Source of the DNA: Myxococcales bacterium
Lineage (GTDB): Bacteria > Myxococcota > Myxococcia > Myxococcales > Anaeromyxobacteraceae
DNA length: 35,800 nucleotides
Reading direction: 5' to 3'
Assembly: GCA_021806645.1 (NCBI GenBank)
Contig: JAJZQX010000023.1
Coordinates: 1-35,800, forward strand
Numbering within the stretch: the stretch's first letter is position 1; every line of letters starts with the position of its first letter. A program made the position numbers and the translations under genes. Below the pieces are notes generated by a model that saw only the letters and a program-made list of their open reading frames with translations, did not search any database and had not been told where the DNA came from. This document shows, piece after piece, positions 168-32,498 of the stretch.

Positions 168-252
168 GATCGGCTTGCTCCGGAATCGGTGATCGGCTTC
201 CTCCGGAATGGGTGATCGGCTTGCTCCGGAATCAGTGATCGGCTTGGGCCGG
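168..252. repeat. 23-bp tandem repeats at IS21 end
   Basis: Three consecutive 23-bp units (168-190, 191-213, 214-236) begin with GATCGGCTT and contain TCCGGAAT; they differ at only a few bases each. A fourth begins at 237 and diverges after about 10 bases. They are likely the transposase binding sites of the IS21-family element whose istA starts at 44. Confidence 0.8.
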
Positions 253-1325: not shown

Positions 1326-1628
1326 CGAGGAGGGTGCAGAGCAACGGGCGTGCCGCTCGGCCGCTGCGGCCCACCTGGCCTCCGGCACTCGCGGCCTGGC
1401 GTTGGGCCGTTCGCGCGGCGGACCGGCGGCCGCGGCGCGAACCTTGGATCGCCAATTGACCTGGCGTTTCTCCCCGCGCGCGGACCGAGTGCGATGGGCC
1501 GCCGCCGCGGCCGACCTCCGCGTGCGGGCCGTCCCGACGGAGGTGCCGGTCCTGAAGCGCGAGGGCGACGCCGACGTCCACGGATGAACGGGAATCAACG
1601 GGCTGAGCTGCCGACCCTCTCTGCTCCC

Positions 1629-1808
1629 CTACTTTCCGAGCACCTTCTCGACCTGGCCGAACTTCTCCTGGATCTTGCCGGACAGCTTCTGGTCCTTCCC
1701 CTCAGCTTCCAGGTTGGGCTTCCCCGTGACGACTCCGGCGGCCTCCTTGACGCTGCCCTTCAGCTTCTCGAACTTGCCCCTTGCCTGATCCTTCGTGCTG
1801 TTCTTCAT
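1629..1808 (-). CDS. CsbD-like stress-response small protein
   Basis: This 59-residue, highly charged, cysteine-free protein starts MKNSTKDQARGKFEKLKG and has the repeated K-G-x-x-x-E-x-x-G pattern and the GK-x-Q-E-K-x-G-x-x-E-K-x-x-G tail typical of the CsbD-like family (about 60 residues). Family members are abundant stress-induced bacterial proteins of unknown mechanism; Bacillus CsbD is under sigma-B. The ATG at 1808 has a strong GGAGGAGAG site 5-7 nt upstream. The next gene upstream on the same strand is a 27-residue membrane peptide, so they may be co-transcribed stress-related small genes. Confidence 0.9.
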   Translation of the reverse strand: MKNSTKDQARGKFEKLKGSVKEAAGVVTGKPNLEAEGKDQKLSGKIQEKFGQVEKVLGK

Positions 1809-1868
1809 GGTCTCTCCTCCAAACAGGTGAACTCCTCGTACCAGCGGGAATGAGCGGCTCGCCTCGCG

Positions 1869-1952
1869 TCACCGGCGGCGCGACCAGAAGAATCCGCCGC
1901 CCCCGAACAGGAAGATGAGGACGACGATGATGATGATGGTTTCGGTCGACAT
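1869..1952 (-). CDS. 27-residue single-pass membrane peptide
   Basis: From an ATG at 1952 the codons give a 27-residue peptide with a short polar start (MSTET), a run of Ile/Val/Leu/Phe of about 12 residues, a GGGG turn, and a basic WSRRR end. The layout is that of a single transmembrane helix with positive residues at the cytoplasmic side. A good GGAGGT site sits 5-6 nt upstream. Similar very short Ile-rich peptides are common, unannotated, in high-GC Proteobacteria and Myxococcota; function is unknown. It precedes the CsbD-like gene by 60 nt on the same strand. The 310 bases between this start and the hairpin at 2263 show no supportable gene on either strand. Confidence 0.6.
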   Translation of the reverse strand: MSTETIIIIVVLIFLFGGGGFFWSRRR

Positions 1953-2262
1953 GGTTGACCTCCACGGCGGGAAGTGCCGCCCACTCCGGATGCCTGGTGC
2001 TCTCGCCCTCCACTCGCTGCATTCACCATGCCCGTGGCTCGAGCACTGCTCCCGCCCCTGTCCTCGTCGTGGGAGCGCCAGTGTTCGCGCTGGACTTGCG
2101 GCATCCCGACCGCGGCGTGGGCCCATGACGAACGTTCACAGCCGTTCGTTCTGGCACCGGCTCGCACGGCTACCCGGCCTTCCCGGGCGGCCTTCAGAAC
2201 TACAACGAGAAGCCGATGGGAAGCGGGCTTCGGCGCGGCACGACCCGCAGCTGAAGACGACA

Positions 2263-2298
2263 CGGCCCGGCCCACCGGGCATACCGGTGGCCGGGCCG
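2263..2298 (-). terminator. GC-rich hairpin downstream of yceI
   Basis: CGGCCCGG...CCGG pairs with CCGG...CCGGGCCG across a loop of about 5 bases with a single bulged C, giving a stem of about 15 bp, 20 nt past the yceI stop. No clear U-tract follows on the minus strand, so it may be a weak intrinsic terminator or an mRNA 3'-end stabiliser. Confidence 0.5.
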
Positions 2299-2318
2299 CG
2301 AGTGGCGCGACAGCGGCG

Positions 2319-2909
2319 CTACTTCTTGGCCGGGGGCGCCTCCTTCACCAGCTCGGCGTCGATGGTGATGGTGACCAGGTCGCTCACCACCGCGTTGGGG
2401 CCGTAGCTGACGCCGAAGTCCTTGCGGTTGAGCTTGGCCGTGGCCGAGACGCCTCGGCGCGCCAGGCCCCAGGGGTCCTTGATCTCCTTGGTCGGGCCGG
2501 TCACGTCTAGCACCACCGGCCTGGTGACGCCGTGCATGGTCAGGTCACCTGTCACCTTGAGCCCCGCGCCGTGCTTCTCCACCTTGGTGGACTTGAAGGT
2601 CATGGTGGGGAACTTGGCGACGTCGAAGAACTCGGGCGACCTGAGGTGGGCGTCGCGCTTCTCCTCGCGGGTGTTGATCGAGGCGATGTCGATGGTGGCC
2701 TCGACGGACGACCTGGTGATGTCGGCCTCGTCGAGGACCACCTTGCCGGCGGTCCTGGTGAACTCACCCCGGACCGTGGAGATCATCAGGTGCTTCACGG
2801 AGAAGGCGACCTGGGTGTGGGCCGGGTCGAGGTTCCAGGTGTCGGCGGCGAAGGCAAAGGCCGGGAGGGCGACGAGGGCGACGGTGAGACTGCGTACGAT
2901 GCGGTTCAT
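2319..2909 (-). CDS. YceI family periplasmic lipid-binding protein
   Basis: The 196-residue protein begins with a Sec signal peptide (MNRIVRSLTVALVALPAFAFA, cleavage probably after AFA). The mature part starts with the family hallmark WNLDPAHTQVAFSVKHL and continues with the VRGEF, SINTREEKRDAHLRSPEFFD and LTMHGVTRPV segments of the YceI lipocalin-like beta-barrel. Family members bind isoprenoid or other long lipids in the periplasm and are often induced by base or osmotic stress. The ATG at 2909 was preferred over one 6 codons upstream because an AAAGGAGC Shine-Dalgarno sits before it. It follows the ArsR-family gene by 52 nt on the same strand, so the regulator probably controls it. Confidence 0.93.
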   Translation of the reverse strand: MNRIVRSLTVALVALPAFAFAADTWNLDPAHTQVAFSVKHLMISTVRGEFTRTAGKVVLDEADITRSSVEATIDIASINTREEKRDAHLRSPEFFDVAKFPTMTFKSTKVEKHGAGLKVTGDLTMHGVTRPVVLDVTGPTKEIKDPWGLARRGVSATAKLNRKDFGVSYGPNAVVSDLVTITIDAELVKEAPPAKK

Positions 2910-2961
2910 GGGTGCTGCTCCTTTCACTGCGGTTGAGGGCGAAACAGGAAGGTGCGGAGGC

Positions 2962-3339
2962 TCAAGCCCTGGTGGGCGATGCTGGCGAAGTCGATGGCGC
3001 CGCGGCCCGGGCGCGCCGCTGGCGTTGCCGCCGGGCGCCGATGGCCCGCCCGGCCGGTGCGAAGATCCGGATCAGCTCTCCCGCCCAGGCCGCCAGCGCC
3101 CCCGGCACGACCCGGTAGTGGTGGAACTGCCCGCTCCGCCTCACCGTCACCAGCCCCGCCGCCACCAGCACCTTCAGGTGGTGCGAGACGGTGGCCTGCG
3201 ACACCGGGAAGGCCCGCACCAGCTCGGCGCAGGAGTGCTCCTGGACCATGGCGATGGCCAGCAGCAGCTCCAGCCGGGTCTGGTCGGAGAGGGCCTTGGC
3301 GACGCCGGCGACCCGGGCGGTGGAGGCGTTCATCGACAT
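2962..3339 (-). CDS. ArsR/SmtB-family winged-helix regulator
   Basis: This 125-residue protein has one winged helix-turn-helix: ALSDQTRLELLLAI (residues ~16-29), the recognition helix region VSQATVSHHLKVLVAAGLV (~46-64) and the wing VRRSGQFHHYRV (~66-77). The metal-binding CxC of ArsR/SmtB sensors is absent; only one Cys is present (in EHSCAEL), so it probably senses something other than metal through that site. The C-terminal ~30 residues are Arg/Ala/Pro-rich and atypical. It lies directly upstream of yceI on the same strand. A 7-bp inverted repeat overlaps its start codon, suggesting autoregulation. The start could be Met1 (3339) or Met3 (3333). Confidence 0.9.
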   Translation of the reverse strand: MSMNASTARVAGVAKALSDQTRLELLLAIAMVQEHSCAELVRAFPVSQATVSHHLKVLVAAGLVTVRRSGQFHHYRVVPGALAAWAGELIRIFAPAGRAIGARRQRQRRARAAAPSTSPASPTRA

Positions 3340-19382: not shown

Positions 19383-22022
19383 TCACATCGGCAGCGGCTC
19401 GCAGGTGCAGCCGGTCTCCGTGGTGCACCCGCTGCTGGCGGCGTCGAGGCAGCCGGTGCCCGCGCCGCAGCAGGCGGCCCCGCCGGTCGTGCAGGGCTGG
19501 TGCAGGAGCGTGCAGGCGTCACAACTGCAGGAGGCCGACGTGCCACAGGCGGCGCCGGTGGTGGCCGGATCCGCCGTGGTGTCGAAGCAGGTGAGCCCGG
19601 CGCAGCAGGGGCTGGTGGCCGAGCAGGACGACTGGACGGTTCCGCAAGTTCCGCAGCTCCCCGAGTTGCACGCCAGGCCGATGCAGCACGGGCTGGTGGC
19701 CGAGCAACTCGCGGCGACCGGCGCGCACGAGTCGCAGACGCAGGAGGTGTCGCCGGCCGGGCACGGATTGACGCCGCCGGAGGAGATGCAGCTCAGCGCC
19801 GGCGAGGCCGTGCAGCAGTCGGCGTCGGCGGTGCAGCCCTGGTACTGCGACTTGCACGTGGGGGGCACGGCGCAGGTGCCGGCGACGCAGGCCTCGGTCG
19901 GGCTGTTGCAGCAGTCGGCGCCGGTGACGCAGTTGCCGCCGGACGGCGCGCAGGTGGAGACCGCCTGGCAGGTGCCGCTGGTGGCGCCGGGCGGGATGGA
20001 GCAGGAGAGGCCCGTGCAACAGTCGCCGTCGGCCGTGCAGGAGGCGCTGGTCGAGCCGCACGGCGGCGCGCAGACGTCGCCCGCGCAGTTGTTCGAGCAG
20101 CAGTCGCTGGCGACGCCACAGAGCTGGTCGTTGGCCTTGCAGGTGGCCGGCACCTCGCAGCTGAAGGCGCTCCCGTCGAAGCTGCAGACGGTCCCCGAGC
20201 AGCAGCTGGCGTCGTCGGCGCCGGCGCACGCGCCATGGAGCGCCGTGCAGGTCGGCAGGGTGCAGCGCAGCACGCCGTCGGCTCCCGGCACGCAGGGCGC
20301 GAAGTTGCAGCACTGGTCGCGGAACTGGCAGACGTTGGCGGCGCCGGTTCCCGGCGGAATGCAGCAGCCGGGCGTGGTGGCGTCGTAGCCGGTGGGGCAG
20401 GTGGTGCAGTCGTCGTTGGGGCAGCCGCCGAAGCAGCGGTAGATGCCGTTGGCGTCCTGCTTGCAGACCGTCTTCTTCCCGTCGCAGCAGTTCTGTGACG
20501 CGGGCACCGCGCCGCTGCCGCCGCAGATGTTCCCGGGCGGGTTGCAGGCCTGGCCGTTGGTGCAGGTGAAGTCGTCCTTGGTGCTGGTGTCGTTGGCGGG
20601 CGGGTTCTTGTCGATGCCGGTTGCGTCGCAGAAGACGCCGTAGGGGTTGGTCCCGGTGTTGACGGCGTCCGGCGAACCGCCACAGCAGTCCTGCGTCTGG
20701 TCGCAGTAGTCGCCGGTCATCCGGCAGCCGCTCGCCGGCTGGCAGACGGTGGCGCCCGAGCCGAGGTCCTTGCAGAGGCGCGTGCAGCAGTTGGAGGCCC
20801 CGGCGCAGGGGTTGCCGTCCTGGTTGCAGCCGCCGCTAGGCGCCTTGCATCGGCCCGGCATGGACGCGGTCAGGTCGCACATGCCGGAGCAGCAGTCCTG
20901 GCTCCGGTAGCAGATGTCGTTGGCGGCGTGGCAGGTGTAGGCGGGGATGCACTTGCCGCCCTGGCAGTTGGTCGAGCAGCAGTCGCCCGCGAGCGCGCAG
21001 GTGTCGCCCAGCGTCTTGCAGGCGCTCGAGCCCGGCAGCGGCTGGCAGGTCCCGGTGGTGCAGATCCCGGTGCAGCAGTCGGCCCCGGCGGTGCAGGACG
21101 TGCTGGTGGTCTGGCACACCGTGTTGCCGCAGAGGCCGCCCACGCAGGAGAGCGAGCAGCACTCGCCCGGGTCGGCGCAGGCCGCGCCCGGCGTCTTGCA
21201 GAAGGCGGTCGAGGTGCAGGTGCTGGTGGTCGCGTTGCAGGCGGTCGAGCAGCAACCGGCGTTGCCGGTGAGCGTGCAGTCGGTGCCCGCGGCCTGGCAG
21301 GTCGAGACCGGCGCCGCGCACAGCTTCGTGGAGGGGTTGCAGTACCCGTCACAGCACTCGCCGTCGGCCGCGCAGGTGACGCCGTTGTTCCTGCAGGTGG
21401 GCGGCGTCGCGCAGAGCTTGCTCCCGTCGCAGTAGGCCGAGCAGCAGTCGGAGCCGAACGCGCAGGTGGTGCCGTTGCCCTGGCACGGCGTGGCGCAGTG
21501 GAGCGTGCCGTCGCAGTGGCCCGAGCAGCAGGCGCCGGGCGCGGCGGGGCAGCTTCCGGCATCGGCGGTGCAGCCGGGCGCGGGCGCGCAGGCCGCCGGC
21601 GTGCCGGTGCAGATGCCGGTGCAGCACTCGGGGTTGCCACCGCAGCTCGTCCCGTTCGGCTGGCACGGGTTGGCGCAGTGGTTGGTCGCGTCGCACGAAC
21701 TCGAGCAGCAGTCGCCTCCCGCGACGCAAGAGGCCCCGTTGACCGCGCACGGCGTCGCGCAGACGTTGGTCGCGTCGCAGAGGCCGGAGCAACAGGTCCC
21801 GGGCGCGGCCGGGCAGGTGTTCCCGTTCGCCACGCACGGCGTCGCGCACTTGTTGGTCGCGTCGCAGTAGCTCGAGCAGCAGTCCCCCGCGACCGCGCAG
21901 GTCGCGGCCAGGGCCTTGCAGGTCGGACCGGGCTCCGGCTTGGAGGATCCGCAACCGCTGCCACCGACGGAGAGCAACAGCGCCAGGGAGGCGCCGGACA
22001 GCAGGTTCCGAAGGGAGTTCAT
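19383..22022 (-). CDS. Giant Cys-rich lipoprotein of tandem knottin-like (C-C-CC-C-C) modules
   Basis: An 879-residue secreted lipoprotein. The signal peptide (MNSLRNLLSGASLALLLSVG) ends at a GSGC lipobox (Cys24), then a short SSKPEPGPT linker. From Cys35 on, nearly the whole protein is modules with spacing C-x6-C-x5/6-CC-x3-C-x4-6-C, about 25-35 residues each: Cys35-59, 63-88, 92-116, 120-145, 151-176, 180-204, 210-235 and so on, roughly 20 in all. A less regular Cys-rich region lies at about residues 430-565, and the final modules also have CxC additions. Module linkers are often ATP or similar. The spacing is that of inhibitor-cystine-knot peptides. Modules are Asn/Thr/Gly/Ala-rich, fitting extracellular exposure. 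The ATG has a GGAGGG site. The 177 bases after the stop (19206-19382) contain no complete gene. Confidence 0.85.
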   Translation of the reverse strand: MNSLRNLLSGASLALLLSVGGSGCGSSKPEPGPTCKALAATCAVAGDCCSSYCDATNKCATPCVANGNTCPAAPGTCCSGLCDATNVCATPCAVNGASCVAGGDCCSSSCDATNHCANPCQPNGTSCGGNPECCTGICTGTPAACAPAPGCTADAGSCPAAPGACCSGHCDGTLHCATPCQGNGTTCAFGSDCCSAYCDGSKLCATPPTCRNNGVTCAADGECCDGYCNPSTKLCAAPVSTCQAAGTDCTLTGNAGCCSTACNATTSTCTSTAFCKTPGAACADPGECCSLSCVGGLCGNTVCQTTSTSCTAGADCCTGICTTGTCQPLPGSSACKTLGDTCALAGDCCSTNCQGGKCIPAYTCHAANDICYRSQDCCSGMCDLTASMPGRCKAPSGGCNQDGNPCAGASNCCTRLCKDLGSGATVCQPASGCRMTGDYCDQTQDCCGGSPDAVNTGTNPYGVFCDATGIDKNPPANDTSTKDDFTCTNGQACNPPGNICGGSGAVPASQNCCDGKKTVCKQDANGIYRCFGGCPNDDCTTCPTGYDATTPGCCIPPGTGAANVCQFRDQCCNFAPCVPGADGVLRCTLPTCTALHGACAGADDASCCSGTVCSFDGSAFSCEVPATCKANDQLCGVASDCCSNNCAGDVCAPPCGSTSASCTADGDCCTGLSCSIPPGATSGTCQAVSTCAPSGGNCVTGADCCNSPTEACVAGTCAVPPTCKSQYQGCTADADCCTASPALSCISSGGVNPCPAGDTSCVCDSCAPVAASCSATSPCCIGLACNSGSCGTCGTVQSSCSATSPCCAGLTCFDTTADPATTGAACGTSASCSCDACTLLHQPCTTGGAACCGAGTGCLDAASSGCTTETGCTCEPLPM
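20850..21920 (-). repeat. Array of the most regular six-Cys modules
   Basis: Codons for the first 12 or so modules of the Cys-rich lipoprotein lie here. At DNA level the units are 75-105 bp and only moderately alike, with recurring segments encoding CCS-x-x-CD-x-T-x-x-C. Divergence among units argues for old duplication rather than recent expansion. Confidence 0.65.
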
Positions 22023-22156
22023 GAGCCCTCCAGCAGGGGTTCGTGGGAGCGCTCATGGTACAGCTTCGCGGCCACCGGCGGGCTGGACCGAAGGGTACCC
22101 GCCGCGGCTGGTGGATGTAGGGGCCCGGCCCACCTCCCTCGCCGAGCGCCTCCCGC

Positions 22157-23785: not shown

Positions 23786-24913
23786 CTAGAACTGGCCTCC
23801 CACGGCCAGCATAGCGCCTCCGGGGACGAGCACGGGAACGGCGGTGGTGCTGGAGGGCGGAGCCGCGGCGGCCGCGTCCTGCAACATGGCCCCGACCAGC
23901 AGCCCACCCGCCGCCAGGGCGCCGGCCCCGGCCACCGCCCAGGAGACGTTGGCGATGGTGGACTGCTGCTGCGCCTGATCGTGCAGGTCGACGGCGCGGC
24001 TGCGCACCGTCTCCGCCTTGTAGGCGTCGTAGCTCCGGCTGGCCTGCGTGCCGAAGTAGATGCCCGAGCCGCCGGCGGCCAGCGCGACGCCGGCCGAGAC
24101 CCAGCCCCAGGTCCAGAGGCGCGAGCGGGCCGCCTCGCCGAGGAGCCGGACCGGCACCAGGTCGGCGGTCACCGGGACGGTCTGGCCCGCCTGCACCATC
24201 ACGGTGGTGGACCAGCGCACGAAGCCGTCCTTCTGCACGGTGATGGTGTGCGGCCCCTCCAGCGCGCGCTGCGCCTCCTTGAGCGGGGTGGTCCCCAGCG
24301 AGCGGCCGTCGAAGGTCACGGTGGCGCCGGACCGGTCCACCGCGACGCGGACCACGCCGGTGGTGTCGAGCTTCTCCCCGGTGACCGCCTCGTGGCCGAG
24401 CCGGCGGGCCGCGTCCACCAGCTCCCGCTCGGTGGCGTCGAGCAGGGTGGCGGTGAGGCGCGCCAGCGTGCGGCTCCTCTTCACGTCGAGCACCTTGACG
24501 GTGAGCAGGGAGGTCCGCTCCAGGATGGTGAGCGAGCCGGAGAGGAGCCGGTCGGAGTCGAGCGCGCCGGCCAGTTCCATCATGCAGCCCTGGTCCTCGG
24601 TGCACCCCAGCATCTGGCGCGTCCTCTCCAGGCCGAGCATGGCGGCGATGTCGCCCTGCGAGAGCACCTGCAGGTCGGGCGCGGCGGCGGCGCCGGCGGC
24701 GGCGGCGTCGGCCAGCACGCGGGCCAGGTCGGCGTGGGCCGAGCCGGCCAGCGTGAAGTCGAGCACCGCCATCCGGTGGGTGGCCCTGATCGTCGGCTTG
24801 ACCGCGGGTGGCCGGGCCGCCTGGGCGGCGGGCGGCGGGAGCGGCGGCTCGGCCAGCTTGACCTGCGCCGGCGCCGAGAGCGGAAGGAGGAGCGCGAGGA
24901 CGAGGCGCTTCAC
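23786..24913 (-). CDS. Secreted/membrane PEGA-domain protein
   Basis: A 375-residue protein with an N-terminal signal peptide (VKRLVLALLLPLSAPAQ). Residues ~45-180 form an alpha/beta domain seen in related myxobacterial proteins (MAVLDFTLAG, LQVLSQGDIAAMLGLERTRQMLGC, LDSDRLLSGSL), similar to the periplasmic TolB-N-like fold of CsgG-like proteins. A PEGA-type beta domain follows (~200-265: GVVRVAVDRSGATVTFDGRSLGTTPL ... GPHTITVQKDGFVRW). Two hydrophobic helices (~280-300 and ~325-350) may anchor it. The GTG start overlaps the upstream lipoprotein stop (GTGA). The pair looks like an envelope complex; its role is unknown. Confidence 0.8.
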   Translation of the reverse strand: MKRLVLALLLPLSAPAQVKLAEPPLPPPAAQAARPPAVKPTIRATHRMAVLDFTLAGSAHADLARVLADAAAAGAAAAPDLQVLSQGDIAAMLGLERTRQMLGCTEDQGCMMELAGALDSDRLLSGSLTILERTSLLTVKVLDVKRSRTLARLTATLLDATERELVDAARRLGHEAVTGEKLDTTGVVRVAVDRSGATVTFDGRSLGTTPLKEAQRALEGPHTITVQKDGFVRWSTTVMVQAGQTVPVTADLVPVRLLGEAARSRLWTWGWVSAGVALAAGGSGIYFGTQASRSYDAYKAETVRSRAVDLHDQAQQQSTIANVSWAVAGAGALAAGGLLVGAMLQDAAAAAPPSSTTAVPVLVPGGAMLAVGGQF

Positions 24914-26277
24914 GGGCACACTCCGGTCGCCGGCGTGAAGGTGGCGGTGACGGCTCCGTCCGGTGTGCACTCGAAGCCGCAGGCCTGCGGTTCGCAGTAG
25001 CTGTACTCCGGGGGAACCTGCGCTGCGGTCACGAAGCACGTCTTCGCCGCCACGAGCGCCGGTGGACACACGCAATCCCCCGGCACGCCAGGCCCAGCGG
25101 CACACGAAGCCTGGACGGAGAGGTTGGGGTCGAAGAGGCACGGCGCGCAGAACGTGGTGTTGGCCGTCACCGGCGGCGTGGGCGGGATGTAGCCCACGCA
25201 GACGCTCGAAGTGCAGCTGAGCCCCCCGCAGTCGGGCGCCGCCAGGCAGGTGGTCATCGAGGCCATCAGGCTGACGTCGGAGGCGACGTAGAGCGAGCCG
25301 ACCTCGGCGACGCGCCCCTCGAGCACCACGCCGTAGGCCGCGGGCGGGGAGAGCGTGGGGACGGGCGCGGCGGCCAGGGCCATCGACGACTGGAGCGCCC
25401 CGGGCTCTATCTTCGCCAGGGGCGGCGCGGTGGCCGGGGCGATGACGGTGACCGTGTAGAGCCCCTCCGGCACCACCACGTCCACCGAGCCATCGGAGGC
25501 GGGCGTGATGGGACTGAGCAGGTACGGGTCGGGGGAGAGGTTCACCTGCATCTGGCTGGGCGAGAGGGAGAGGCCCACCGCCTGCAGCCTGAGCCGGAGG
25601 CGGCCCGTCGAGGCAGCGGTCCAAGGCGTGATGCTGGCCAGCGTGATGGTCTTGCCCCCGTCGGCGGGCGCGACGTTCACCGACACCTGGCCGCCGACCC
25701 ACGCCCCGGCGAAGGTGTCGGTGGCCGCCAGCTTGATGACGTGCGTCCCCACCGAGAGGGCCGGGAACCTGAACGAGGCGGGCGGCGTCGGGTTGCCCGG
25801 CACCACCACCCCCGGGACGAGCGCCGCGGTCTGGCCGCTGGTCTCGTCCACCGCGACGCCGCCGGCCAGCGTGATCCCGGCCGGGAGCGCGAAGCTCCCC
25901 TCCACCGCCGTGGTGGGGCGCATCGCCACGTTGCCGAGGTCGAGCCCCTCGGGCTGGCCGTCGCGGCCGTAGTCGATCTGGATGTCGCGCTCGAGCGTCA
26001 TGGTCATGCCGTTGCGGAAGAGGAGCCGGTGCTGGCCCGCCGGCAGGTCGAAGACGAAGAAGCGGCCATTGGGACGGCTCAGCTGGTCGAAGGCCGCCCC
26101 CTTGAGCGAGATGGCCACGCCCGCGGCCGGGACCAGCGTCCCGGTTCCAGCCGGGTCGGCCACCACCGTCCCCCTGGCCTCTCCGGCCCGGAGATCCTCG
26201 GCCGGATTGCCGTAGGTGTAGAAGCAGCCGGCGAGCTGGGCGGCGGCCAGCAACACGAGGTTTCGGTCTGGTGTCAC
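24910..26277 (-). CDS. Large extracytoplasmic lipoprotein with Ig/carboxypeptidase-regulatory-like repeats and Cys-rich tail
   Basis: A 455-residue protein starting at GTG 26277 after an AAGGAGTG site. The signal peptide ends at the lipobox LAGC (Cys18). The mature protein is beta-rich with repeated segments typical of carboxypeptidase-regulatory/Ig-like modules (GVAISLKGAAFDQLSRPNGRFFVFDLPAGQHRLLF; GSVDVVVPEGLYTVTVIAP). The last ~110 residues contain about 16 Cys (for example PDCGGLSCTSSVCVG and CVCPP), perhaps disulfide-bonded at the surface. It is first in an operon with the PEGA gene (4-nt overlap) and the CorC-type gene, and divergent from an alpha/beta hydrolase. Function is unknown. 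Confidence 0.75.
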   Translation of the reverse strand: MTPDRNLVLLAAAQLAGCFYTYGNPAEDLRAGEARGTVVADPAGTGTLVPAAGVAISLKGAAFDQLSRPNGRFFVFDLPAGQHRLLFRNGMTMTLERDIQIDYGRDGQPEGLDLGNVAMRPTTAVEGSFALPAGITLAGGVAVDETSGQTAALVPGVVVPGNPTPPASFRFPALSVGTHVIKLAATDTFAGAWVGGQVSVNVAPADGGKTITLASITPWTAASTGRLRLRLQAVGLSLSPSQMQVNLSPDPYLLSPITPASDGSVDVVVPEGLYTVTVIAPATAPPLAKIEPGALQSSMALAAAPVPTLSPPAAYGVVLEGRVAEVGSLYVASDVSLMASMTTCLAAPDCGGLSCTSSVCVGYIPPTPPVTANTTFCAPCLFDPNLSVQASCAAGPGVPGDCVCPPALVAAKTCFVTAAQVPPEYSYCEPQACGFECTPDGAVTATFTPATGVCP

Positions 26278-26314
26278 GCGGCCACTCCTTGCTGGGACGA
26301 AGTCCTTGGGAGCA

Positions 26315-26320
26315 TATCCT
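26315..26320 (+). promoter_or_regulatory. TATCCT hexamer, possible -10 of a leaderless transcript
   Basis: TATCCT ends 8 nt before the hydrolase ATG at 26329, and no Shine-Dalgarno lies between. The same arrangement occurs before the hydrolase at 30279 (TAACCA, 30266-30271) and before sthA. Confidence 0.35.
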
Positions 26321-26328
26321 TTGTCGGC

Positions 26329-26988
26329 ATGGCGGCGATCGACTTGCGAGGACCCATCGGGAGGTTGGAGGCGCTCCTGGAAGAAGTCGCCTCCCCGCGG
26401 TTCGCCGCGCTGGTCTGCCACCCCCACCCCCTCATGGGCGGCACCATGCACACGCACGCCGTCCACCGGATCGCCAAGGCGGCCCGGCTGGCCGGCGGTG
26501 TCTCGCTTCGCTTCAACTACCGGGGAGTCGGGCTGAGCGACGGGAGCTACGACCGGGGGCGCGGCGAGGCCGACGACGCCGGAGCCGCCCTCGCCTTCCT
26601 GGCCGGCCGCTACCCGGAGCTGCCCCGCCTCTGCTGTGGCTTCTCCTTCGGCGCCTTCGCGGCGCTGGCGGCGGGGCCGCGCGACCCGGGCGTCCAGGGG
26701 CTGTTGCTGGCGGGCCTGGCGCTGGCGCCGGTCACCGATCTCCCGCGCGACCTCGGACCGCTGCGCGCCCTGCGGCTCCCGGTGGCGGTGGTGCAGGCCG
26801 AGCACGACCAGTTCGGCTCGCCCGGCCAGGTCCGCTCGGCGCTGCAGGGCTCGGCCGGCCCGCGCCGCGTGGCCGTGGTGAGGCACGCGACCCACCTCTT
26901 CACCGAGGCACTGGACGACCTTCAGCTCGAGGCGGAGGCGGCGGCCGGCTGGCTGCTCGACGCCGGCACGGCGCAGCCGGCTCGATGA
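26329..26988 (+). CDS. Alpha/beta hydrolase (COG2945-like)
   Basis: A 219-residue cytoplasmic alpha/beta hydrolase. The oxyanion-region motif CHPHPLMGGTMHTHAVH (30-46) and NYRGVGLSDG (63-72) are typical of the small COG2945 hydrolases. The nucleophile elbow is GFSFG with S106, the acid is in QAEHDQFG and the His in RHATHLFTE. Substrate unknown. The ATG has no Shine-Dalgarno; see the TATCCT element just upstream. It is divergent from the lipoprotein operon and stands alone. Confidence 0.85.
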   Translation: MAAIDLRGPIGRLEALLEEVASPRFAALVCHPHPLMGGTMHTHAVHRIAKAARLAGGVSLRFNYRGVGLSDGSYDRGRGEADDAGAALAFLAGRYPELPRLCCGFSFGAFAALAAGPRDPGVQGLLLAGLALAPVTDLPRDLGPLRALRLPVAVVQAEHDQFGSPGQVRSALQGSAGPRRVAVVRHATHLFTEALDDLQLEAEAAAGWLLDAGTAQPAR

Positions 26989-27041
26989 CACCGACCGTGC
27001 CGGGTGCCCGCCGCCGCGGTGCGCCGCCGGGTGAGGCGCGA

Positions 27042-27428
27042 TCAGTGCCGGACGTCGGACCGGGGCGCGGGCTCGCCAGCGAGGCGGCGGATGTGGGCCA
27101 GCAGGTCGTCGAGCCGGAAGGGCTTGGCCAGGACGGCGGAGACCTGGATGTCCGGGTCCTGCCCCAGCGCGGTCACCACCACTACCGGGATCTTGGCCAG
27201 CGCCGCGTCCTCCAGCTGCTCGGCCCGGAACTCCCAGCCGCTCATGCCGGGCATCATCAGGTCGAGCAGGATGAGCGTGGGGCGAAAGCTCCGGCACAGG
27301 GCCAGCCCCTCGCGCCCTTCGCGCGCCGTGGCGACGACGTGCCCGGCGAACTCGAGCGCTTCCCCAACGACCTCACGGATGTCCGAGTCGTCATCGATGA
27401 CGAGGATGCGAGCCACGGCGGACTTCAT
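27042..27428 (-). CDS. Single-domain response regulator (receiver only)
   Basis: A 128-residue CheY-like receiver with no output domain. The acidic pocket IDDD (11-14), the phosphoacceptor D56 in LILLDLMMPG, T86 in VVVVTAL and K102 in LAKPF are all present, so it should be phosphorylatable. Such proteins act by phosphorelay or by binding partners. No histidine kinase is adjacent. The ATG at 27428 was taken over a longer upstream frame because it begins the domain and has GGAG about 11 nt upstream. It follows tldE by 62 nt on the same strand, so co-transcription is possible. Confidence 0.9.
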   Translation of the reverse strand: MKSAVARILVIDDDSDIREVVGEALEFAGHVVATAREGREGLALCRSFRPTLILLDLMMPGMSGWEFRAEQLEDAALAKIPVVVVTALGQDPDIQVSAVLAKPFRLDDLLAHIRRLAGEPAPRSDVRH

Positions 27429-31862: not shown

Positions 31863-32498
31863 CTACGGTTCTTCGTCGCCGGCGCCGTCGTCCCAGTCGC
31901 CGGCACCCTGGTTCATGCCGAGTGCGCCGGGCCCGGGGCCCATGCCGGGACCCATGCCCATGCCGGGACCCATTCCCATGCCGGGACCCATGCCGGGACC
32001 ACCGGGGCCGCGGCCGTGATGGCCGCCCCGCATCTGCTGCATCATCCGCTGGTGGAACTTGGCGAGGAAGAGGACGGCGCGGGCGCGCTTCTCGGGCGGC
32101 AGGTCCTTGGTGACGGTGGTCACCACCTCGCGGTCGAGCGCCTGCATCTGGGCGCGGGCGTCGAGCAGCCGGGTGATGGCGCCGTCCACGTCGGCGGCGG
32201 CCACCTTGTCCCCCCTGGCGGAGCGGCGGAGCACCTGCACCGAGTCGCGCATCTGCTGCGCGGCGGCCATCCGGCGCGGCGTGAACTTCTCGATCTGCCC
32301 GCGGACCCTGAGGGCCGCGGCGTCGTCGAGCTGGAGCGCCTCGGCCAGGCCGAGGGTGAGGGCGAGCTGCATGCGGCGGTGCATCTTCTCCATCCGGGCC
32401 GGGTCCATCGGCCCGGGCTGGCCGGACCGCATCATGGGGGCGGCCTGGGCGCTGGCCAGCAGCGGGACCAGGGCGAGCAGGAGTGCGAGCTTCTTCAT
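31863..32498 (-). CDS. Spy/CpxP-like periplasmic protein with Gly-Pro-Met repeat tail
   Basis: A 211-residue exported protein. A Sec signal (MKKLALLLALVPLLASAQA) is followed by a Met/Arg-rich helical region (MEKMHRRMQLALTLGLAEALQLDD ... FTPRRMAAAQQMRDSVQVLRR ... AVLFLAKFHQRMMQQMRGG), consistent with Spy/CpxP/LTXXQ-type envelope-stress chaperone or metal-binding proteins. The tail has about seven GPGM-type units and an acidic end (DWDDGAGDEEP). Met- and His-rich segments suggest possible metal (Cu/Zn) binding; this is inference. A GGAAGGA site precedes the ATG. It is third after an ECF sigma and anti-sigma gene (38-nt gap), as in envelope-stress regulons. Confidence 0.8.
   Translation of the reverse strand: MKKLALLLALVPLLASAQAAPMMRSGQPGPMDPARMEKMHRRMQLALTLGLAEALQLDDAAALRVRGQIEKFTPRRMAAAQQMRDSVQVLRRSARGDKVAAADVDGAITRLLDARAQMQALDREVVTTVTKDLPPEKRARAVLFLAKFHQRMMQQMRGGHHGRGPGGPGMGPGMGMGPGMGMGPGMGPGPGALGMNQGAGDWDDGAGDEEP

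What the first reader, a model, noticed from the sequence alone, without database searches (positions are those of the whole stretch)
19383..22022. Bacterial lipoprotein built of about 20 tandem knottin (inhibitor-cystine-knot) modules
Seen directly: repeated C-x6-C-x5/6-CC-x3-C-x4-6-C units from Cys35 to near the C-terminus, behind a lipoprotein signal. Established: this is the cysteine order and spacing of inhibitor-cystine-knot peptides such as omega-conotoxins (O-superfamily framework VI/VII) and spider toxins. Inference: the protein displays a rod of disulfide-locked mini-domains on the cell surface, for adhesion, predation, protease inhibition or self/non-self contact. Tandem ICK domains are known in animals but a ~20-copy array on a bacterial lipoprotein would be notable.
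Basis: partly seen in the sequence, partly recalled or inferred. Interest (0 to 1): 0.8.

Follow-up and report, generated by a model that had tools for sequence, protein, structure and literature searches.

The report
Bacterial lipoprotein built of cystine knots
A soil bacterium and its myxobacterial relatives make a lipid-anchored envelope protein that is a chain of about two dozen tiny disulfide-locked domains, each laid out like the toxin knots of cone snails and spiders; it belongs to a conserved, unnamed protein family with an unusually conserved centre, and suggests that bacteria use this fold as a building block of long envelope proteins.

Summary
ORF 19383-22022 (-) encodes an 879-aa predicted lipoprotein with 155 Cys: 22 modules C-x6-C-x5..11-CC-x3..7-C-x4..13-C plus two with enlarged loops (17 strict modules against 0.45 expected when Cys gaps are shuffled). 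The knottin reading is well supported. Module profiles hit almost only inhibitor-cystine-knot (ICK) peptides in the PDB, and rotated-register controls lose most hits. An AlphaFold2 model of three modules (pLDDT 85) superposes on nemertide alpha-1 (0.7 A, 29 columns). The only double Cys losses found in regular modules are C2+C5 and C1+C4, both ICK pairs. Cys number in the module region is even in 55 of 56 relatives. No Pfam or NCBIfam family covers it. Most likely role: an outer-membrane protein whose knotted arms form a tough stalk for the core. That is inference; function was not tested. Single bacterial ICK domains were modelled in 2013 (one in Haliangium), so this is a new variant of a known kind.

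The parts
19383..22022 (-). Gene for the 879-aa Cys-rich predicted lipoprotein (155 Cys, mature pI 4.1)
   Evidence: protein-level homologues, core 50-71% identical, in relatives
22026..22031 (-). Ribosome-binding-site-like GGAGGG, 4-9 nt before the ATG
   Evidence: sequence printed
21951..22022 (-). Signal peptide aa 1-23 and lipid-anchor Cys24 (VGGSG-C; +2 Gly)
   Evidence: relatives have more canonical lipoboxes; +2 Gly is not the inner-membrane signal (+2 Lys) found in M. xanthus, PMC3222651
21318..21920 (-). Modules 1-7 (aa 35-235): extra N-terminal ICK modules beyond the family's usual three; 87-nt tandem repeat visible in the DNA at 21673-21886
21045..21299 (-). Modules 8-10 (aa 242-326): correspond to the three N-arm modules usual in other families of the phylum
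20262..21023 (-). Conserved core (aa 334-587): three regular modules followed by three with enlarged loops (CNPPGNICG...NASQNCCDGKK.VCK.D..GI.RCFGG..CPTGYD...CCI..G..CQFRDQCC...PCVP)
   Evidence: non-Cys identity 0.55 against 0.32/0.37 in the arms
20562..20726 (-). Loop-expanded module Cys433-487 (6/5/0/17/21)
20433..20546 (-). Loop-expanded module 14, Cys493-530 (6/11/0/6/9)
20262..20363 (-). Loop-expanded module Cys554-587 (10/5/0/4/9); the Cys pair matching Cys542/Cys553 is lost together in L052 and L053
19425..20249 (-). C-arm modules 15-22 (aa 592-866); most relatives have four here
19401..19409 (-). C-terminal CxC pair (Cys872/874), after the last module; a C-terminal CxC is common in the family
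   Evidence: alignment

Best explanation
The gene encodes a lipoprotein, most likely in the outer membrane, that folds as a string of about 24 inhibitor-cystine-knot mini-domains. Each six-Cys unit is closed by C1-C4, C2-C5 and C3-C6 disulfides and joined to the next by a short Gly/Ala/Pro-rich linker. The central core (three regular knots plus three with enlarged, conserved loops) is the part under most constraint and probably carries the binding or recognition activity. The flanking knots act as a compact, protease-resistant stalk whose length can change by duplication of single modules. Shown or well supported: the repeat, the predicted ICK fold, the family, its usual plan, the conserved core. 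Inferred: outer-membrane site, surface exposure, the stalk role of the arms, ligand binding by the core.
For: Repeat far beyond chance. Module profile against PDB: 41 hits, nearly all ICK peptides; rotated registers keep only 6 and 5 weak hits, mostly partial ICK matches in the original register. Of 57 three-module stretches, 51 match Pfam Conotoxin_I2 at E<=0.01, best 1.4e-9; related myxobacterial arrays pass Pfam's curated cut-off, e.g. 56.5 against 27 bits. AlphaFold2 of three modules pLDDT 85; Foldseek top hit nemertide alpha-1, prob 0.99, TM 0.85 by target, 0.7 A over 29 columns, nearly all other hits ICK; core model likewise. Double Cys losses in regular modules: only C2+C5 and C1+C4, one lineage each. 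Even Cys number in the module region in 55 of 56 relatives. C1-C2 is 6 in 713 of 719 modules while the C6-C1 linker runs from 2 to 52 aa, which fixes the register. Usual 3+core+4 plan, expansion in the window's family. Core identity 0.55 against 0.32/0.37 in the arms. Knot arrays occur joined to another ectodomain, e.g. five knots then 13 RCC1 repeats in L127, as expected of a spacer.
Against: No coordinates were available, so S-S distances in the models were not measured. Foldseek E-values are weak (best 0.27) and VIA-align Z is at most 3.0, though the domains are only about 30 residues. The window protein's lipobox has Gly at -3. No experiment places the protein on the cell surface. No gene partner is conserved across families, so genome context gives no functional hint. 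AlphaFold confidence in parts of the core's long loops is only about 60-70.
Confidence: 0.5

Rival explanations
1. It is a structural envelope or matrix protein in which the whole array, not just the core, is the working part, possibly cross-linked between chains by disulfides.
For: 27 of 56 relatives carry one extra Cys at +3 of the mature protein next to the lipid anchor, and in those the total Cys count is odd, so one Cys may be free to link chains or partners. Extreme Cys content (about 17%) and no enzymatic domain.
Against: The window protein lacks the +3 Cys and has an even count of 154. The core is much better conserved than the arms. Mostly one copy per genome, and arms vary in length.
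Confidence: 0.2
2. It is a toxin, antimicrobial or protease inhibitor used against prey or competitors, as ICK peptides are in venoms and plants.
For: Same Cys framework as ICK toxins and plant knottin inhibitors; many myxobacteria are predators (general knowledge).
Against: Very acidic (pI 4.1, net -37; family median pI 4.3), while channel toxins and antimicrobial peptides are mostly basic (general knowledge); first loops hold only 6 Lys/Arg in 126 positions; lipid-anchored chain, not single secreted knots; no partner gene conserved nearby.
Confidence: 0.1
3. The modules are a different disulfide-rich fold (for example Dickkopf/colipase-like) that merely shares Cys spacing with knottins.
For: Three of 57 stretches match Dickkopf_N; colipase appears low in the fold lists.
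Against: Colipase aligns only at 5.6 A while the best ICK peptides align at 0.7-1.4 A; ICK hits dominate in sequence and fold searches; Cys-pair losses match ICK pairs. The known myxobacterial repeat TIGR02232 does not match anywhere in the genome.
Confidence: 0.1
4. It is a metal-binding or thiol-redox protein, a kind of extracytoplasmic metallothionein.
For: 155 Cys with a CC pair in every module.
Against: The protein is predicted to be exported, spacing inside modules is nearly fixed, Cys vary in pairs, and the pairs lost are ICK pairs.
Confidence: 0.06

Closest known systems
Inhibitor-cystine-knot peptides (knottins): Pfam Conotoxin_I2 PF17557, Toxin_12, Toxin_19; PDB 6ena nemertide alpha-1, 1hvw, 5fzv, 6nk9
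   Same: Six-Cys order C-C-CC-C-C, loop lengths, predicted fold
   Different: About 24 copies in one chain on a predicted bacterial lipoprotein, acidic, anchored, with a conserved core
Bacterial ICK domains HoHP-ICKD (Haliangium ochraceum) and KrICK (Ktedonobacter racemifer), PMC3694633
   Same: ICK domain in bacteria, one of them in a myxobacterium
   Different: Single domain each (one at the end of a protease-like protein, one free peptide); no array, no lipoprotein
SCREPs, secreted cysteine-rich repeat proteins, PMC6262176; double-knot toxin DkTx
   Same: Tandem disulfide-rich domains; the data mining there found many bacterial members
   Different: The characterised ICK members named there have two knots and act on ion channels or membranes; ICK was rare in that set; this family is not described in the passages read
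TIGR02232 myxo_disulf_rpt (Myxococcus cysteine-rich repeat)
   Same: Repeated disulfide-rich unit in myxobacteria (from memory)
   Different: No match to this protein or elsewhere in its genome
TraA, myxobacterial self-recognition receptor (PMC6372800)
   Same: Cys-rich cell-surface protein of myxobacteria (search result)
   Different: Different architecture from memory (PA14-like domain plus Cys-rich region); no direct comparison was run

Membership tests
Inhibitor cystine knot (knottin) fold | Six Cys in order C-C-CC-C-C with short loops | tested here: met
   22 modules plus 2 loop-expanded
Inhibitor cystine knot (knottin) fold | Disulfides C1-C4, C2-C5, C3-C6 with the third threading the ring | tested here: inconclusive
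   Indirect support only: natural double losses C2+C5 and C1+C4, even Cys parity, Foldseek superposition on ICKs at 0.7-1.0 A. S-S distances could not be measured
Inhibitor cystine knot (knottin) fold | Predicted fold matches solved ICKs | tested here: met
   Nemertide alpha-1 TM 0.85 by target, 0.7 A, prob 0.99; nearly all other hits ICK; E-values are weak
Pfam Conotoxin_I2 (PF17557) | Score above curated cut-off of 27 bits | tested here: not met
   Whole window protein 19.2 bits; related arrays L124, L125, L128 do pass
TIGR02232 myxo_disulf_rpt | Match to the model | tested here: not met
   No match at E<=0.1 for the protein nor at 0.01 in the genome
Bacterial lipoprotein | Signal peptide and lipobox with Cys | tested here: met
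   VGGSG-C24 in the window, atypical at -3; a lipobox pattern found in 56 relatives. No dedicated signal-peptide predictor was run
Venom-type toxin | Acts on ion channels or membranes of other organisms | not testable with these tools
   Needs an assay; the acidic, anchored array (pI 4.1) makes it unlikely

The most novel reading that the evidence does not exclude
A conserved class of bacterial envelope proteins in which cystine knots are used as polymer-like, length-adjustable stalk units for a knotted recognition core, with knot arrays also joined to other ectodomains (such as RCC1 repeats) elsewhere in the phylum: a bacterial counterpart of EGF or Ig stalks made of knottins.
Probability: 0.35. 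Interest if true: 0.75.

Novelty: new variant of a known kind. Interest (0 to 1): 0.6.

Why it matters
ICK folds are studied mainly as short eukaryotic toxins and inhibitors. A conserved bacterial family with roughly 10 to 24 knots per chain suggests the fold is used as a modular building block in bacteria. It offers a genetically tractable system for how bacteria fold many interlocked disulfides, a large natural set of acidic knottin sequences, and an uncharacterised, widely kept myxobacterial envelope protein to study.

Tried and rejected
Operon or partner genes: ORF clustering of about 50 neighbourhoods found conserved neighbours mainly within Myxococcaceae or within Anaeromyxobacter, and none shared with the window. 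The register of the repeat was tested by rotating it. A first scan for Cys losses returned nothing because its flanking limits were too tight; the second also listed misparsed loop-expanded modules, so only the flank-checked cases and the core alignment were used. PDB sequence search with the whole protein gave no hit. Literature searches gave no report of a bacterial knottin array in the open-access library. No gene tree was built.

Full report
What is there. ORF 19383-22022 (-) is a real gene: 879 aa, ATG start, GGAGGG just upstream, GC3 0.96, and its protein is conserved in relatives, the core at 50-71% identity. The window is a whole 35,800-base contig of a 4.14-Mb genome. The protein has 155 Cys: one lipid-anchor Cys and 154 others. 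A loose six-Cys pattern finds 22 modules; Cys433-487 and Cys554-587 look like two more with enlarged loops. Ten Cys lie outside these 24 modules and fall in five near neighbours (534/539, 542/553, 761/763, 832/834, 872/874; own reading). Shuffling residues or inter-Cys gaps gives 0.02 and 0.45 strict modules against 17 seen.

Why knottin. Pfam scans of the whole protein give only sub-threshold hits, all to toxin families. A profile of the modules finds 41 PDB chains at E<=1, nearly all ICK peptides. Profiles of the same sequence cut in two rotated registers find 6 and 5 weak ones, mostly partial ICK matches. Of 57 three-module stretches, 51 match Conotoxin_I2, and sister arrays in the phylum pass Pfam's own cut-off. 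AlphaFold2 gives pLDDT 85 for three modules and 79 for the core. Foldseek places both on ICK structures, with the caution that E-values and Z-scores are weak for such short domains.

Two tests from evolution. First, among about 820 modules of 69 array proteins the only regular modules that lost two Cys lost C2+C5 (Anaeromyxobacter lineage: L005, L006, L013) or C1+C4 (L010 and L027, which appear to be the same gene). Both are ICK pairs; two events are few. Second, in 55 of 56 relatives with a recognisable N-terminus the number of Cys in the module region is even, although it ranges from about 58 to 154 and is often not a multiple of six. Of the 28 odd totals, 27 belong to proteins with an extra Cys at position +3, and none of the even ones has it. 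Relatedness of the sequences makes the p-values nominal.

The family. Homologues are in 21 of 41 nearest genomes, the window's own included, and 79 of 195 genomes of the phylum, mostly one copy. Named hits include Anaeromyxobacter terrae, A. oryzae, A. soli, A. oryzisoli, and Archangium and Myxococcaceae assemblies. Nearly all have an N-arm, a conserved core and a C-arm; 3+core+4 is by far the commonest plan, and the window's family has expanded arms, here 10+8. I read 3+core+4 as ancestral because it occurs in most families outside the window's; no tree was built. The core's non-Cys residues are 0.55 identical on average against 0.32 and 0.37 in the arms. No NCBIfam model matches the core in any of 34 members.

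How it may work. The signal peptide with +2 Gly and no +7 Ala fits an outer-membrane lipoprotein by the rules found in M. xanthus (PMC3222651). The arms vary in length and sequence more than the core, so I infer a stalk and a working centre. Similar knots occur in front of 13 RCC1 repeats in L127 and as a bare array in L128, which fits a general spacer role. Surface exposure and ligand are not shown.

What is known. Single bacterial ICK domains were modelled in 2013, one in the myxobacterium Haliangium (PMC3694633). Tandem Cys-rich proteins are reported to be common in bacteria (PMC6262176). Neither, in the passages read, describes an ICK array of this kind. The library searched is open access only.

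Noticed in passing
relatives, e.g. L017, L033, L067, L082 (N-termini): About half of the relatives have a CxC lipobox: an extra Cys at +3 of the mature lipoprotein, which accounts for nearly all odd Cys totals. It could link chains or partners at the membrane.
   Followed up: partly
L127:484-2751 (-): A predicted lipoprotein with five knot modules followed by 13 RCC1 repeats: knots joined to a beta-propeller-type ectodomain.
   Followed up: partly
L124:1348-2094 (-) and 1551-3086 (-): Five nearly identical knot units in a row, scoring 56.5 bits for Conotoxin_I2; the open frame seems to switch inside the gene (512-aa and 249-aa overlapping frames), perhaps a sequencing error in the repeat.
   Followed up: no
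window 31863-32498 (-): A 211-aa ORF with an 18-nt repeat (GCCCATGCCGGGACCCAT, 3.2 copies, 31938-31994).
   Followed up: no
window 168-246: A 23-nt tandem repeat, 3.4 copies at 91% match, near the contig end.
   Followed up: no
window 24910-27297 (-): A predicted protein with a weak carboxypeptidase-regulatory-like domain and a Cys-rich C-terminus of a different spacing.
   Followed up: no
   Followed up: no
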